DNA of 64,000 nt, from NCBI RefSeq assembly GCF_916619195.1, contig NZ_CAKAKL010000007.1:248001-312000 (forward strand), read 5' to 3'. Origin of the DNA: Inquilinus sp. Marseille-Q2685 (GTDB taxonomy: Bacteria; Pseudomonadota; Alphaproteobacteria; DSM-16000; Inquilinaceae). Position numbers and translations under genes: made by a program. Shown in pieces: positions 2,184-54,814 of the stretch. The notes below the pieces were generated by a model that was not told the DNA's origin, made no database searches, and saw only the letters and a program-made list of their open reading frames with translations. How positions within the stretch are numbered: the first letter of the stretch is position 1; each line of letters opens with the position of its first letter.

Positions 2184-2562
2184 CGGCGGTCCTTCCGGGG
2201 CTGATCGAAGGCGTGCGCTGGGGCGAGGGCACGGTATGATGCCGGAACCGGTGCCAGGATTCGATGCCCGGATGCGCGATTGATCCGGGATCCCCTGGGT
2301 GGACTATGCCGAAACGGATCGTGCATTGGGCCCTGCTCGACCGCGGCGTCCAACTCCGGCGCTCAACCTCGACGTGGCCTCCGCCGCGACGGTGGCACGA
2401 TCTGTCTACCCAACATCGCCGCCTGGGCTGATTGCTGCGGCAGGGCCAAGGTGGGCGACCAGGGAGCGGTGGAGACGTTCCGGCCGCTGACGGGCTCACA
2501 GGCACGATGGCTCTGGCAACCGGTTTGCAGGGCGAATAGCCCATGCTTCGCGCGGACGAAGC
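2184..2562. other. Intergenic region, left flank of the AT-richer cassette
   Basis: No convincing gene on either strand; the short open frames here have no Shine-Dalgarno and overlap each other. Base composition drops from the very GC-rich neighbour genes towards the cassette at the right. It probably holds the promoter of the leftward genes and the left junction of the cassette. I see no tRNA remnant, direct repeat or transposase fragment. Confidence 0.5.
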
Positions 2563-2591
2563 TTGACTCGCAGCTTTGGAACATATAGAGA
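2563..2591 (+). promoter_or_regulatory. Sigma70-like promoter of the two-gene cassette
   Basis: TTGACT at 2563-2568 matches a -35 hexamer (TTGACA) and, after 17 bases, TAGAGA at 2586-2591 is a moderate -10 (an alternative TATAGA lies two bases earlier with a 15-base spacer). The -10 falls inside the SOS box, the classic geometry of a LexA-repressed promoter. The first gene starts about 75 bases downstream. Confidence 0.55.
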
Positions 2592-2593
2592 AC
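2579..2593. promoter_or_regulatory. SOS box (LexA operator, alphaproteobacterial GTTC-N7-GTTC type)
   Basis: GAACATATAGAGAAC reads GAAC-N7-GAAC, the exact reverse complement of the alphaproteobacterial LexA consensus GTTC-N7-GTTC. It sits 72-86 bases upstream of the GTG start at 2665 and covers the -10 of the putative promoter. Seen in the sequence: the motif and spacing. Established: this direct-repeat operator is used by LexA in Alphaproteobacteria. Inference: the downstream pair is induced by DNA damage. Confidence 0.7.
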
Positions 2594-2664
2594 ATTCTGG
2601 CTCTGGTTTACTAAGTCCACCCTGCTGGTTAGGCTGTGATCTTTAATCAGGCAGGGGAAACAAA

Positions 2665-3711
2665 GTGTCTCTTATTTCGGTAGAACAGTTAGATAAAATC
2701 GTTATAGAGAGGATGATATTTCATGTTGTTGGTCCGGAAGATGCGAATTTAGTGTTGTTAGAGGAGATTGATCCAGGAAGTCATGCGAGTTTCTTCCTTG
2801 ATAGGATTCGATCTTCTTGCAATGGAATCATGTTTGATTTTCTTTCAGCATCACCGGTTCTAGCATCTCTCAGGCGTGTTGAAAGTGACTCTAGTCGATT
2901 TTCATCAGAGACAAAGGATTTGGCCGCGCTGTTCAACGGGCTGCACAGTGGAGCAGCAAGTGTTGGTGTATTTTTGGTATTCATGTTGCTTGTTGACGGG
3001 AATCGATTTTATGCAATAATTAAATACGATCACGAAGAAGTTTTGTCGTATACTATACAGGAAGAAGAAGATGTTCGACGTGCATTGATTGCAGCACTTC
3101 AGAGTACCTTTGTTCGCTCTCCTGACGCTTTGCAGAAAGCGGCGATCATACGGCTTACTGATGTAGGCGGCGAACTTTCTATCCGCGATCGGGTGTCTCC
3201 AGGAAAGGTCACTAAGTATTTCCAAGGATTTTTAGGCGTGAGACGCCGTTTTCAACCGGATCAGCTCACTAGTTCACTTTCTGAAATTGCTAAGAAGACA
3301 GCTCGGAGGCATGCAGCAGACCTCGGTTCTGCAGTAATGGGGCAGCTTAACCGGCGTGTTTATGATGCAATTCAGGCGCAGCCCGGATTCGATCCTGCCA
3401 ACCGTGAACCGTTCCTTGCGGCGGTGTTTGGTCCACTTCCTGAAGACTCACCGATCCGCAAGACCTTTGATAGGGAGTTGCGGAACTCGCGCATTGAGAA
3501 CGAAGTATTTGAATTCGACAAGGCTGCTGTGCCGCGTCCTCGTCGTAAGCATTTAGTTACAGATGAGGGTATCGAGGTTATATACGACCGTCAGTATGAC
3601 GATCGTATTCGTCGTGAGCCTAACGTCGGTGGGGGAGAACGCATTGTGATCGAGACCGGAGGGGTCAGGGTCGAAGATGACTACGCCGAACCGCGTACGC
3701 GCCTTCGTTAA
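2665..3711 (+). CDS. NdpA-like (37-kDa nucleoid-associated family) protein, first gene of SOS-boxed cassette
   Basis: 348 residues, starting at GTG with a strong AGGGG Shine-Dalgarno 9-13 bases upstream. The order of features resembles NdpA/YejK proteins: an N-terminal strand pair (VIERMIFHVV...NLVLLEEI), a hydrophobic GVFLVFMLLVDGNRFYAIIKYD core, a KVTKYFQGFLG segment near residue 190, and a C-terminal GIEVIYDRQYDDR...IVIETGGVRVED region. NdpA proteins bind the nucleoid; KwaB of the Kiwa defence system is another DNA-associated partner of a membrane protein, though I cannot show homology to it. Codon use is unlike the neighbours: bases 2701-2760 hold only 22 G/C of 60 by hand count. It overlaps the next gene by 35 bases, implying translational coupling. 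The NdpA assignment is by eye and moderate; it may be a distinct family of the same fold. Confidence 0.55.
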   Translation: MSLISVEQLDKIVIERMIFHVVGPEDANLVLLEEIDPGSHASFFLDRIRSSCNGIMFDFLSASPVLASLRRVESDSSRFSSETKDLAALFNGLHSGAASVGVFLVFMLLVDGNRFYAIIKYDHEEVLSYTIQEEEDVRRALIAALQSTFVRSPDALQKAAIIRLTDVGGELSIRDRVSPGKVTKYFQGFLGVRRRFQPDQLTSSLSEIAKKTARRHAADLGSAVMGQLNRRVYDAIQAQPGFDPANREPFLAAVFGPLPEDSPIRKTFDRELRNSRIENEVFEFDKAAVPRPRRKHLVTDEGIEVIYDRQYDDRIRREPNVGGGERIVIETGGVRVEDDYAEPRTRLR

Positions 3712-5101
3712 TCAACTTGCTGAGAATGGTTCGCTCGACGAGCGTCTTGATCGAGTTGATGTACGTGGCTTGGCCGGTGCTTCTCTGATCGCGGAGCTAC
3801 GTGAAGTCGCGCGCCTATGGCAAGATGGCGGATTTGGCAGCTTTGAGGCGTTAGATGCGCTCGGTGATGATCTGGACTTGGCGACGCTCAGCGAGGTCGA
3901 AGGTGAGCTGCGATTGATCATCACAAAGCGATCGACTGATACTACGTCTTACTTTCTAACGCCTCAGGGAGTTCGTCATCTTCTAATAGATGCGGGGCGA
4001 GTAGCAAAGACAAGGCGTGTACTTGTTGCCGAGGCCTTCGACGCCTTTCAGACAGTTTCCTGTTCGTTTGAGCCATGGATAACCATGGTTGAGGACATAA
4101 CGGAACCATGTCGTCTTCAGGGCGTAGTGCCGCGACGTATCGTACGAGACCAACTTGCGCAGGTTCCGCTCTCGATTGGGCCAATCCTACTTGATTCCGC
4201 GCCGGCTCAAGCTAGTACAGTTTTCGAAGTCTGGAGGGCCGTTGCGGCTCCCCAACTCCTTACCACGCTTTGTGATGAGATATGGTCGGTTGATGGCGTT
4301 ACGACGATAGCCCTGTCTGGTCCGAGACGTCGGCGTCTTATTGCTGACTTCGATGCCGTCTTGCCCGAGCGCGATCTTGGCCCGGCTATGGAAGCTGCCT
4401 CTTGGATCTATGACAGCGGTCGTGATGTAGAGACTCGCCACACTCTCTTTACATACGAGCTTGCGCGTGAATGGCCAGCAGACACTCCGTTTGCGCTTGG
4501 ATTTGCTGCGCGGGTACCCGATGCTCTGGAGGCCGCAAAATCCGCATTTCGTATGCATGTTCGTGAGGCTAGCAAGGAAACGCTAAAATCCTTGCAGGAT
4601 TTGCGGAAGAGCCTGTCGGAAGATGTTGCCCGGATGGTCACCCAAACCCGCGAGCTCGTGGCAACAACTTGGCGGGATTTTCTCGTCGTGGTAGCTGCGT
4701 TGTTGGGAAGGATGGCGCTAGTCAGCTCTTCAAAATCTTCTGAGTTAGATGCTGCTGAATGGTTGCTCATAGGCACTGCCATTTATCTTACTTTCAGCAT
4801 TATCATCACGATCGCATCTAATGCTAGCTTCATGCGCCTCGCAAGAGAGTCTCGCGCGGAATGGAAGACTAAGCTTTATGGGTTTCTTGATGAAAAGGAC
4901 TTCAAGAAACTAGCTGCTGATCCGTTAGATAAAGCAGAGCGCATTTACCGTCGAGCACGCAACGTTGCTTGTTGCGCTTATGTTATTTTGATTGTCGGTC
5001 TTATTGTGATGGCGATTGTTTCGGGAATTGGGGCTGGTAGAGCGGAGGCCAGCGAGGAGGATGTGCCGTTTCTGCTAGCGCACGCACCGACTTCCGAGTA
5101 G
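3677..5101 (+). CDS. Hypothetical protein with three C-terminal membrane segments, second gene of SOS-boxed cassette
   Basis: 474 residues. Residues 1-330 are soluble and of no family I recognise; the stretch around 295-330 (EASKETLKSLQDLRKSLSEDVARMVTQTREL) looks coiled-coil. Three hydrophobic segments follow at about 334-352, 362-385 and 430-455, with a charged loop between the second and third (RESRAEWKTKLYGFLDEKDFKKLAADPLDKAERIYRRAR), so the protein is probably anchored in the inner membrane with a large cytoplasmic head. The ATG lies inside the end of the NdpA-like gene with AGGG upstream. AT-richer than the surrounding genes, suggesting the pair was acquired together. A DNA-associated partner plus a membrane protein under LexA control is reminiscent of two-gene abortive-infection designs, but the function is unknown. 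Confidence 0.75.
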   Translation: MTTPNRVRAFVNQLAENGSLDERLDRVDVRGLAGASLIAELREVARLWQDGGFGSFEALDALGDDLDLATLSEVEGELRLIITKRSTDTTSYFLTPQGVRHLLIDAGRVAKTRRVLVAEAFDAFQTVSCSFEPWITMVEDITEPCRLQGVVPRRIVRDQLAQVPLSIGPILLDSAPAQASTVFEVWRAVAAPQLLTTLCDEIWSVDGVTTIALSGPRRRRLIADFDAVLPERDLGPAMEAASWIYDSGRDVETRHTLFTYELAREWPADTPFALGFAARVPDALEAAKSAFRMHVREASKETLKSLQDLRKSLSEDVARMVTQTRELVATTWRDFLVVVAALLGRMALVSSSKSSELDAAEWLLIGTAIYLTFSIIITIASNASFMRLARESRAEWKTKLYGFLDEKDFKKLAADPLDKAERIYRRARNVACCAYVILIVGLIVMAIVSGIGAGRAEASEEDVPFLLAHAPTSE

Positions 5102-5166
5102 TCCCGTCGTGCATGATTATGTGGTGGCCTGGATCGTCGTGCGTATGGGGATGATTGTGGCTAGTT

Positions 5167-7302
<2,136 letters not shown>

Positions 7303-7452
7303 TCGCTCTTTCCCTTCCAGGCCGGCTGAGCCGGCCCCCGTAGCTCTTGGCACCAGTCCGTTGCCGCTGCCGCTCGCAAGGATCGATGTCGGGCGATCAC
7401 TCAATCCGGCAACGGGGATGAATGTTCCGCACCGGCCCCCGTCATCAACAAC

Positions 7453-7491
7453 CCTCCCCCTGGCCCCCTCCCGCGAGGGGAGGGGGAGGAT
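7453..7491. repeat. Short GC-rich intergenic hairpin, related to the dispersed palindrome family
   Basis: A C-rich run (CCCTCCCCCTGGCCCCCTCCC) followed by GCGAGGGGAGGGGGAGG forms a strong hairpin between glgX and the gene upstream of it. It resembles the cores of the longer repeats at 40159, 42600 and 51578. It could slow or end transcription before glgX. Confidence 0.5.
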
Positions 7492-7526
7492 GGACGGCGA
7501 GGGCTGATCCAAAACCTGCCGTCCCC

Positions 7527-8040
7527 TCACAGCGCCTCGCGCCAGCGGGACCGCCACAGCCGGTAGTCCGCCCCGTATTCGCAGGCCGGGCTGGTCTCGT
7601 TGCCGAAGCGGTCGCGGAACGGGTTCAGCACCCGGTGGCCGCGCCAGTCGAACACGTCGGTCGCCGCGGTCGGCCCCAGCGCCTCGGCCAGCGCGTCGTT
7701 CCGTAGGCCGCGCAGGAGGGCGAAGGCGTCGATCGGGCGCAGGCCGAGCCATTCGTCGAGATCGGCGGGATGCAGGCACAGGCGCCGCCGCTTGCGCCAA
7801 TGGCCGAGCACGTCCCAGACCACCGGCGCCGGCTCCTCCTCGTCCCCCGGCGGGCGGGCGACGGCACGGATGTCGACCCGCTCGGCGAAGCAGCCGGTCA
7901 GCTCCACCCGCTCCGGGCCGGAGCTCGTGACCGACAGGCCCAGCCGCTCGAAATGCTCGCGCTGCGGCTCGTCGGAGGCGGCGGAGCGGGGCAGGGGCAG
8001 CCCGCCCTGCGCGGCGGGGTTCGAGATCAGGCGCAGGACT

Positions 8041-8051
<11 letters not shown>
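7527..8051 (-). CDS. Hypothetical protein of the trehalose operon
   Basis: 174 residues, start ATG overlapping the TAG of treY (ATGGTGAATAG), so translation is coupled. No signal peptide or membrane segment. A central beta-like region (HFERLGLSVTSSGPERVELTGCFAERVDIRAVAR) is followed by an Arg/Trp-rich part (WDVLGHWRKRRRLCLHPADLDEWLGLRPIDAF) and an aromatic C-terminus (YRLWRSRWREAL). I do not recognise the family. Its position after treZ-treY suggests a role in, or passive co-expression with, trehalose synthesis. Confidence 0.65.
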
Positions 8052-10538
<2,487 letters not shown>

Positions 10539-53923: not shown

Positions 53924-54814
53924 TCACTTGCCGATATAGGCGGCCAGTTCATCGGGCGTTCCCGTCGGAAATGCCTGTTTCAGATGATCGAGAAACGCCG
54001 ATACCCGGGCGCTGAGCAGCCGCCTGGACGGGTAGAGGGTCCACAAGGCGATTTCGGGCCCTTCATCGTCGCCCCAATGCACCAGCGAGCCGTCGGCCAG
54101 ATCATGGCTCACGAGCGACACGGGAAGGCGGCCGGCACCGACGCCTGCCCGCACGGCATCCCGGACCATCATGAGCGATGACAGGGCGAGGACCGGCTCG
54201 ATCGCGATCACGGCTCGGCCGTCAGGCGTCTTCACGGCCCATTCCCGTCGATCGACTGCCGAGCGGACCACGGCTGGAGCGGCGAGATCTCCGGCCGGTC
54301 GGGCGAGGCCGGGGCTCGCCACGACCACCAGCCGGTCGTGCAGGAAGGTCCGTCCGACCAGGCTGTCATCGGGATCCGGGTTGACCCGGATCACCAGGTC
54401 GAATCCCTCCTCGATCAGGTCGACGGGACGGTCCTCGGTCGAGACCTCCAGCCTCACCTCCGGATAGGCCAGGGCGAAGCCGGCGGCGATCTTGCCCATG
54501 GCCGTCTGGGAGAACAGCAACGGGACGCTGACCCGCAACCGGCCTCGCGGCCTCTCACCGCCGGAGGCGATCGCCGTCGCCGTCTCCTCGAGTTCGGTCA
54601 GCAACCGGCCCGCCCGCTCGAACAGCGCCCGTCCTTCCTCGGTGAGCTTCAGCGCGCGCGAGCCGCGCTCGAACAGGCGCAGGCCGAGGGCGGCTTCCAG
54701 CTCGGCGACCCGCCGGGACAGGGTCGCCTTGGGGCGACCCGTGGCGCGTGCGGCTCTTCCGAACCCGCCGTGGCGGGCGACGAGATTGAAATCGGCAAGA
54801 GCGAGCAGATCCAT
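53924..54814 (-). CDS. LysR-family regulator
   Basis: 296 residues. N-terminal winged helix-turn-helix (LALADFNLVARHGGFGRAARATGRPKATLSRRVAELEAALGLRLFERGSRALKLTEEG) and a type-2 periplasmic-binding-like effector domain (GRLRVSVPLLFSQTAMGKIAAGFALAYPEVRLEV, GFDLVIRVNPDPDDSLVGRTF). Start ATG at 54814; a GTG three codons upstream is possible. Divergent from the NmrA-like oxidoreductase gene 102 bases away, which is the usual LysR-target layout. Confidence 0.93.
   Translation of the reverse strand: MDLLALADFNLVARHGGFGRAARATGRPKATLSRRVAELEAALGLRLFERGSRALKLTEEGRALFERAGRLLTELEETATAIASGGERPRGRLRVSVPLLFSQTAMGKIAAGFALAYPEVRLEVSTEDRPVDLIEEGFDLVIRVNPDPDDSLVGRTFLHDRLVVVASPGLARPAGDLAAPAVVRSAVDRREWAVKTPDGRAVIAIEPVLALSSLMMVRDAVRAGVGAGRLPVSLVSHDLADGSLVHWGDDEGPEIALWTLYPSRRLLSARVSAFLDHLKQAFPTGTPDELAAYIGK

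What the first reader, a model, noticed from the sequence alone, without database searches (positions are those of the whole stretch)
2563..5101. SOS-boxed, AT-rich two-gene cassette: NdpA-like protein plus membrane-anchored partner
Two overlapping genes, much less GC-rich than everything around them (22 G/C of 60 at 2701-2760 by hand count), sit behind a promoter whose -10 is covered by a GAAC-N7-GAAC LexA box. The first protein resembles nucleoid-associated NdpA; the second has a large unknown head, a coiled-coil-like stretch and three C-terminal membrane segments. A DNA-associated sensor coupled to a membrane effector is the logic of some two-gene anti-phage systems, and induction by DNA damage would link it to phage or genotoxic attack. 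I know no named system with this pair.
Basis: partly seen in the sequence, partly recalled or inferred. Interest (0 to 1): 0.87.

Follow-up and report, generated by a model that had tools for sequence, protein, structure and literature searches.

The report
SOS-boxed two-gene phage-defence-like cassette
A mobile pair of overlapping genes, a DNA-binding YejK/NdpA-type protein and a membrane protein with a large cytoplasmic head, sits at a spot where sister species carry other defence-type genes, and in several distantly related bacteria it is preceded by a DNA-damage (LexA) switch, so it is probably a phage-defence system that the cell arms when its DNA is attacked.

Summary
Window 2665-3711 encodes an NA37/YejK-family protein (PF04245; predicted fold matches solved E. 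coli YejK). Window 3677-5101 encodes a protein of no known family with a head, a 78-residue helix and three membrane segments. They overlap by 35 bases, are 51% G+C against 71% around them, and have a GAAC-N7-GAAC box at 2579-2593.

The pair is a real unit: in 397 proteobacterial genomes gene B was found in 7 and its NA37 partner in the same 7, adjacent in each. Of 6 genomes of the genus only this one has it; at the same site the other 5 carry dGTPase, SIR2+kinase, a GHKL-like ATPase, an AAA-like protein, or almost nothing. Relatives lie on plasmids, in prophages and at an E. coli tRNA-Leu site beside a methylase. A LexA box precedes the pair in 7 of 15 alphaproteobacterial loci, though those proteins are only 28-39% identical to the window's; 8 of 15, and E. 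coli, lack it.

Best reading: a Rex-like abortive-infection module, SOS-primed in some hosts; antiphage function is untested. A YejK-domain defence system was already validated in E. coli (PMC13092281); I could not tell whether it is this pair.

The parts
2494..5166 (.). Inserted cassette, boundaries approximate
   Evidence: In congener G655 the equivalents of window 2493 and 5172 are 50 bp apart (L087 1354 and 1304); the DNA in between has no match (E 1e-5) in the stretches of the 5 congeners compared; cargo G+C 51% against 71% flanks
2563..2589 (+). Promoter-like TTGACT (2563-2568) ... TATAGA (2584-2589), spacer 15, the -10 inside the LexA box
   Evidence: Read by eye; consensus resemblance only, not tested
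2579..2593 (+). LexA (SOS) box GAACATATAGAGAAC
   Evidence: Exact match; exact box upstream of the pair in 7 of 15 alphaproteobacterial loci; near-identical box at the 5' end of a Y-family polymerase gene of the same genome
2665..3711 (+). Gene A: NA37/YejK-type DNA-binding protein, 348 aa
   Evidence: PF04245 E 5.6e-8, 33 bits over cut-off 24.6; predicted model pLDDT 84.8 matches YejK 9be2, E 2.7e-9, prob 1.00
3677..5101 (+). Gene B: membrane protein, 474 aa; head (about 1-265), 78-residue helix 272-349 running into the first membrane segment, three hydrophobic segments, acidic tail
   Evidence: No Pfam, PADLOC or NCBIfam hit over cut-off; model pLDDT 81.6; no PDB or viral fold match at E <= 0.001; hydropathy and charge count
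2200..2493 (+). Left neighbour: remnant of a calcineurin-like phosphoesterase gene with about 545 bp missing inside; the gene is whole in congener G657
   Evidence: blastn to L087 and L089; Metallophos_2 E 1.3e-16 for the G657 copy
5167..7800 (-). Right flank of the hotspot: glycogen-debranching GlgX-like gene (name recalled from its sequence, not searched); 5167-6200 matched at 91-95% in all 5 other genomes of the genus

Best explanation
The cassette is a horizontally acquired two-gene anti-phage (abortive-infection-type) module working like lambda RexAB but built from unrelated proteins. Gene A, a nucleoid protein of the YejK fold, coats or samples DNA and recognises an abnormal DNA state made by phage replication or by damage. 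It then contacts the cytoplasmic head of gene B; the 78-residue stalk helix passes the signal to B's membrane segments, B assembles, and the inner membrane is breached or growth stops before phage is released. In this host and several other alphaproteobacteria LexA holds the operon low; DNA damage raises it. Since a Rex-type sensor triggers its membrane partner when overproduced (published for P. putida), dose control by LexA would be part of the switch. Shown here: genes, pairing, mobility, hotspot, YejK fold (predicted), membrane topology (predicted), recurrent box. Inferred: antiphage function (about 0.7), A as sensor and B as membrane effector (about 0.5), LexA control in this host (about 0.8).
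For: Co-occurrence: gene B in 7 of 397 genomes, the A-type protein in the same 7 plus one 20-bit hit. Intact adjacent pair in 23 of 25 loci examined, longest frames overlapping in 22 of those 23. A and B distance matrices correlate at r 0.945, 0 of 5000 permutations as high (co-inheritance alone can also give this). Hotspot: 5 of 5 other genomes of the genus have both flanks with other contents: GHKL-like ATPase, dGTPase (PADLOC E 4.6e-124), near-empty, AAA-like protein, SIR2_2 + kinase. Mobile settings: 5 intact pairs among 7 plasmid records opened, phage vB_ThpS-P1, E. coli Rac-like prophage, tRNA-Leu + integrase + N-6 methylase + HNH gene in two E. coli, PLD-helicase antiphage genes in Methylocystis, a PADLOC 'Effector, phospholipase' (CBASS-type, label recalled) 3.3 kb away in Bosea. 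LexA: 7 of 15 alphaproteobacterial loci. Model for the logic: RexAB (PMC12894663, PMC11077077, passages). A YejK domain is already validated in defence (PMC13092281 section 5).
Against: No antiphage or induction data. No homology of A to RexA or KwaB or of B to RexB by profile comparison. Gene B resembles no known pore or channel, so 'membrane breach' is inference from topology; by simple hydropathy only 13 of 20 relatives show at least three C-terminal segments, 7 show two. 8 of 15 alphaproteobacterial loci and the three E. coli copies examined lack a box. Neighbours were picked by eye: 4 of 9 sent to PADLOC hit at E <= 1e-8, two of them only generic UvrD-type helicases, and there is no background control. 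L048 (Methylomonas) lies among genes that look ordinary by eye. None of the other cargoes of the hotspot has a LexA box.
Confidence: 0.55

Rival explanations
1. Nucleoid or topoisomerase modulator of mobile elements: A adjusts supercoiling or silences and activates element genes (as NdpA2 does on ICE PAPI-1), and B tethers it and its DNA to the membrane; benefit is to the element, not immunity.
For: YejK family is nucleoid-associated and YejK is reported to act on gyrase and topoisomerase IV (passages of PMC10053502 and PMC10561277); NdpA2 with TprA controls transfer of PAPI-1 (PMC8565334 passages); pair found on plasmids and prophages.
Against: Here the pair stands alone at a chromosomal spot: the insert holds no other long gene, and congeners carry dGTPase or SIR2+kinase at the same place; partner B matches no transcription-factor family.
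Confidence: 0.2
2. Toxin-antitoxin-like addiction pair: B is a membrane toxin, A keeps it silent by binding it or its promoter DNA.
For: Two overlapping genes on plasmids and prophages; in S. meliloti pSymA gene A is whole and gene B broken, as expected if B is costly.
Against: The Klebsiella plasmid keeps a truncated B without A (truncated, so weak evidence); both proteins are larger than most such pairs (recalled); LexA induction of both genes together would not free the toxin by itself (inference).
Confidence: 0.15
3. SOS-induced growth or division checkpoint carried by mobile elements, protecting cells during DNA repair rather than against phage (the kind of role reported for SOS-induced membrane proteins in Caulobacter; recalled).
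For: LexA box in 7 of 15 alphaproteobacterial loci; B is an inner-membrane protein by prediction.
Against: No good E. coli-type LexA box at the three E. coli copies examined or at the other non-alphaproteobacterial relatives except a fair one at L061, so SOS control is not the conserved core; siting among defence cargo.
Confidence: 0.1

Closest known systems
E. coli YejK / NdpA (NA37, PF04245), PDB 9be2
   Same: Gene A passes the Pfam cut-off and its model matches the YejK structure.
   Different: Accessory and mobile, beside gene B; 14% identity in the fold alignment, TM 0.40 and rmsd 15 overall; one 20-bit hit besides the seven pair members in 397 genomes, taken for a housekeeping copy.
Lambda RexAB and the RexAB-type pair of Pseudomonas putida
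   Same: Logic: non-specific DNA-binding protein plus membrane protein, two adjacent genes, carried by prophages.
   Different: No detectable homology (hhalign probability 0.1 for A-RexA, 0.6 for B-RexB, in percent); B has a large head and three membrane segments, lambda RexB is 144 aa and the P. putida partner has four predicted segments; I know of no LexA box on rex (recalled, not searched).
DefensePredictor system with a YejK domain (Science 2026, PMC13092281)
   Same: A YejK nucleoid-associated domain in a transcription unit that protected E. coli MG1655 against phages (section 5).
   Different: Its partner genes are shown only in a figure and supplement that are not held. It may be this pair: 32 of 5,426 E. 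coli genomes match it. No SOS control is described in the sections read (5, 6, 7 and figure legends).
Kiwa (KwaA/KwaB)
   Same: Membrane protein plus DNA-binding protein (recalled).
   Different: No profile match of A to KwaB (PF16162 relatives; probability 0.8 percent); no PADLOC hit.

Membership tests
NA37 / YejK (PF04245) | Score over the Pfam gathering cut-off | tested here: met
   33 bits against 24.6; 10 of 11 alignment members, window included, match PF04245 at E <= 0.1
NA37 / YejK (PF04245) | YejK fold | tested here: met
   Foldseek 9be2, E 2.7e-9, probability 1.00, but TM 0.40 and rmsd 15 over the whole chain
NA37 / YejK (PF04245) | Binds DNA, modulates topoisomerases | not testable with these tools
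   -
Rex-type exclusion (RexAB) | Homology to RexA and RexB | tested here: not met
   hhalign probability 0.1 and 0.6 percent against single sequences; RexA absent from the 50 listed of 306 fold matches
Rex-type exclusion (RexAB) | DNA-binding gene adjacent to a membrane-protein gene | tested here: met
   DNA binding is by family only
Kiwa | KwaB homology | tested here: not met
   hhalign probability 0.8 percent against an alignment of 7 ORFs from KwaB loci, 2 of which (90 and 93 aa) are probably wrong picks; no PADLOC match
LexA (SOS) regulon of alphaproteobacteria | GAAC-N7-GAAC box in the promoter region | tested here: met
   2579-2593, 86 bases before the start codon
LexA (SOS) regulon of alphaproteobacteria | Same type of box on known SOS genes of the same genome | tested here: inconclusive
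   Y-family polymerase gene GAACATATAGCGAAC and an HhH-GPD repair gene GAACATAAAGAGAAC; recA and lexA stretches carry only sites one letter off
LexA (SOS) regulon of alphaproteobacteria | RecA/LexA-dependent induction | not testable with these tools
   -
Anti-phage defence system | Accessory, mobile, in defence hotspots | tested here: met
   no background control
Anti-phage defence system | Protects cells from phage | not testable with these tools
   -
DefensePredictor YejK-domain system | Same partner gene as gene B | not testable with these tools

The most novel reading that the evidence does not exclude
A new class of SOS-primed bacterial immunity: a nucleoid protein has been recruited as a DNA-state sensor that signals directly to a previously unknown membrane effector, and LexA keeps the pair just under its firing threshold, so that DNA damage arms the cell before or during phage replication. 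The same module moves through plasmids, prophages and chromosomal islands of alpha- and gammaproteobacteria, gaining LexA control only in some hosts.
Probability: 0.35. Interest if true: 0.8.

Novelty: new variant of a known kind. Interest (0 to 1): 0.6.

Why it matters
It would give the newly validated YejK defence domain a fixed partner, a wide host range and a regulatory circuit, and would link the SOS response directly to a candidate abortive-infection effector. It also offers a ready test bed: the pair occurs in E. coli, so phage plating in a laboratory strain can settle the function, while the alphaproteobacterial copies allow the SOS part to be tested.

Tried and rejected
Homology to Kiwa KwaB and to lambda RexA/RexB was tested and not found. 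CorA-like or toxin-pore likeness of gene B (long helix into the membrane) was considered; the best PDB matches are long-helix proteins at E 0.66 or worse and mean nothing. PADLOC gave nothing at all and NCBIfam nothing over cut-off for either protein. PDB sequence searches with gene B and with profiles of A and B gave no usable match. Repeats or a target-site duplication at the cassette ends: only short repeats that I take for chance; no tRNA gene in the window. The mechanism of insertion stays unknown. LexA boxes in front of the other cargoes of the hotspot: none in the stretches of 5 of 5 congeners, so SOS control belongs to this cassette, not to the spot. Viral contigs: 5 of 8 scans used, 2 distinct contigs found. 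A tree test did not decide whether the LexA box arose once: 3 changes needed on both trees, at least 2 forced by well-supported branches. E. coli searches with the Klebsiella and pKAZ5 versions found nothing.

Literature: searches looked for a named system with a YejK/NdpA protein (20, 20, 40, 6 and 10 papers listed); 104 was on SOS and defence, 105 on Rex, 111 on the LexA motif, 132 on the E. coli site. The only defence report of a YejK domain that I came upon is PMC13092281. Passages seen: PMC10305613, PMC8565334, PMC10053502, PMC12894663, PMC11077077, PMC10561277, PMC6473078, PMC10732053; of PMC13092281 sections 5, 6, 7 and the figure legends plus passages; a term search of PMC10121019 for yjgR, ahr, leuX and the like found nothing.
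Full report
WHAT IS THERE. Two genes read to the right at 2665-3711 and 3677-5101 and overlap by 35 bases. G+C is 50.8% for the cassette against 71.4% around it. GAACATATAGAGAAC lies at 2579-2593. A TTGACT at 2563 and a TATAGA at 2584 inside the box can be read as a promoter with a short spacer; this is resemblance only.

GENE A. PF04245 (NA37) matches residues 66-308 at E 5.6e-8, 33 bits over a cut-off of 24.6. Its predicted model (pLDDT 84.8) has one match at E <= 0.001 in the PDB, E. coli YejK 9be2 (E 2.7e-9, probability 1.00; the superposition is poor overall, TM 0.4 and rmsd 15, which could mean a different domain placement). 10 of 11 members of the alignment, window included, match NA37 at E <= 0.1.

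GENE B. No family in Pfam, PADLOC or NCBIfam passes a cut-off. The model (pLDDT 81.6) has a mixed alpha/beta head to about residue 265, a helix from 272 to 349, and two more long helices. Hydropathy gives three membrane segments in the window protein; the stretches I take as cytoplasmic carry more K+R than D+E (10 to 8, 11 to 8) and the tail is acidic (1 to 5), which fits head inside and tail outside. Of the 20 proteins compared, 13 show at least three segments over the threshold in the C-terminal part (one of them four) and 7 show two (L034, L038, L040, L048, L050, L060, L062), so three is the commoner but not the only count by this crude measure. No fold match at E <= 0.001 in PDB or viral models.

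THE PAIR IS A UNIT. A profile of B finds 7 of 397 proteobacterial genomes; a profile of A, run with the same drawing of 397, finds the same 7 and one more at 20 bits, which I take for a housekeeping YejK. Only a few first-look candidates per genome were scored, so these are lower bounds. Of 25 loci with B examined, 23 have an intact adjacent pair; the exceptions are a Klebsiella plasmid where an IS26 lies in front of a truncated B and S. meliloti pSymA where A is whole and B is in pieces. The 25 include three near-identical Pantoea loci (L035, L052, L059) and other close relatives. In 22 of the 23 the longest frames overlap. Distances of A and B among 20 loci correlate at r 0.945; 0 of 5000 permutations reach it, which also follows if they are simply inherited together.

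IT IS MOBILE AND SITS IN A HOTSPOT. In 17 genomes of the family and order, 6 of them of the genus, only this one has the pair (B, A). Both flanks were found in all 5 other genomes of the genus, with different DNA between them: a 609-aa protein with weak GHKL-ATPase matches just under the Pfam cut-off (G653), a dGTPase (G654; PADLOC dGTPase E 4.6e-124), almost nothing beyond the phosphoesterase gene (G655, where the equivalents of 2493 and 5172 are 50 bp apart), an 833-aa protein with AAA matches just under the cut-off (G656), and a SIR2_2 protein with a kinase-domain gene (G657). dGTPase and SIR2 proteins are known defence types. The G+C of the four other cargoes is 42-54%. So this place in the genus takes up foreign, defence-like genes.

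OTHER SETTINGS. Relatives of B lie on 11 plasmid records (Rhizobium 3, Pantoea 3, and one each of Methylocystis, Klebsiella, Enterobacter, Sinorhizobium and an uncultured bacterium). I opened 7; in 5 the pair is intact. In Methylocystis the next genes are DUF262 proteins and a PLD-helicase with a DUF1156 gene annotated as antiphage. Phage vB_ThpS-P1 carries a divergent pair near its genome end. In E. coli 32 of 5,426 genomes match, 29 over most of the length (one search lists them); in the one Rac-like prophage opened, the pair lies against the strand of the neighbouring phage genes, between antiterminator Q and Hok/DUF1367 genes. Two E. coli with a version 65% identical over half the length have it at a tRNA-Leu gene next to an integrase, with an HNH gene and an N-6 methylase after it. 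Of 9 neighbouring proteins that I chose by eye and sent to PADLOC, 4 matched at E <= 1e-8: an 'Effector, phospholipase' (CBASS-type; Bosea, 3.3 kb away), a type I restriction subunit, and two UvrD-type helicases, which is weak because that family is general. There is no background control. Integrase genes lie upstream of the pair in L051 and L053, and a TniQ gene is next to L063.

THE LEXA BOX. One box in a window means little. Three things carry weight. First, exact GAAC-N7-GAAC precedes the pair in 7 of 15 alphaproteobacterial loci (window, Methylocystis, two Bosea, three Methylobacterium), 86 to 196 bases before the start, while those proteins are only 28-39% identical to the window's. Second, the tighter form GAACATA-N4-GAAC occurs 6 times in 295,504 bases and all 6 are in front of the pair. 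With the genome's own rate, 7 of 15 has probability about 2e-13, and 5 of 11 after merging close relatives about 7e-10 (rough, since that rate comes from one genome and the box was known before the test in one of the loci). Third, in the same genome GAACATATAGCGAAC stands at the 5' end of a Y-family polymerase gene and GAACATAAAGAGAAC 27 bases before an HhH-GPD repair gene, and the recA and lexA stretches have sites one letter off. I looked at 17 stretches with such sites; apart from these two I recognised no repair gene at them by eye, and only these two were searched. Against: 8 of 15 alphaproteobacterial loci have no exact box, the three E. coli copies have no good E. coli-type box, and only one locus outside the alphaproteobacteria (L061) has a fair one, 3 mismatches. 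Some genome matches to the pattern are a separate repeated motif, GAACATATCATGAAC and a near copy, which makes the background rate used here too high rather than too low.

HOW IT MAY WORK. A YejK-type protein is a non-specific DNA binder by family. B offers a head and a long helix joined to membrane segments. [quoted passage not shown] in P. putida overproducing RexA alone triggers RexB-dependent membrane damage, without depolarisation in that assay (PMC12894663, passages). If A and B behave alike, LexA repression would keep them below threshold and DNA damage would arm them. Steps shown here: pairing, mobility, siting, predicted fold of A, predicted topology of B, recurrent box. Inferred: sensing, contact, membrane effect, defence.

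KNOWN OR NEW. It is not Rex or Kiwa by descent as far as profile comparison can tell. DefensePredictor (PMC13092281, section 5) cloned 94 E. coli units, validated 42, and lists 'a YejK nucleoid-associated domain' among domains new to defence; the legend of its Fig. 3C explains TM and CC marks, but the parts of the main text that I read say no more on that system. Because the present pair occurs in E. coli, that system may be this one; I put it at about even odds. I therefore call the finding a new variant of a known kind (two-gene DNA sensor plus membrane effector). The new parts are the fixed partner B across at least two proteobacterial classes, the hotspot, and the recurrent LexA control.

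VERDICT. Observation confirmed; interpretation partly supported; function untested.

Noticed in passing
window genome G000, e.g. C1:815451, C1:986720, C2:1048866: GAACATATCATGAAC (13 times) and a close variant GAACATAGCATGAAC (7 times) recur among the listed GAAC-N7-GAAC places. It looks like a separate repeated motif rather than a LexA box; its role is unknown.
   Followed up: partly
window 2200-2493: Remnant of a calcineurin-like phosphoesterase gene with about 545 bp lost inside; whole in congener G657 (L089 4260-5009).
   Followed up: partly
L085 1388-3217, L086 1852-3390, L088 1324-3825, L089 1278-3667: Other cargoes of the same hotspot: a GHKL-like ATPase, a dGTPase, an AAA-like protein whose N-terminal part looks HsdR-like by eye, and a SIR2 gene with a kinase-domain gene. 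The ATPase and the AAA-like protein match no PADLOC model at E <= 0.001 and may be unnamed defence genes.
   Followed up: partly
No PADLOC hit for the last two of L060.
   Followed up: partly
L132 (E. coli Ecol_316) 8001-10464: The pair sits in a Rac-like prophage between antiterminator Q and Hok/DUF1367 genes on the opposite strand, as an added-gene (moron) insertion would.
   Followed up: partly
L064 4764-6098: A HipA-type kinase gene lies upstream of the most divergent pair.
   Followed up: no
window 53947-53961: A second GAAC-N7-GAAC match (GAACGCCCGATGAAC, minus strand), less like a LexA box; its gene was not examined.
   Followed up: no
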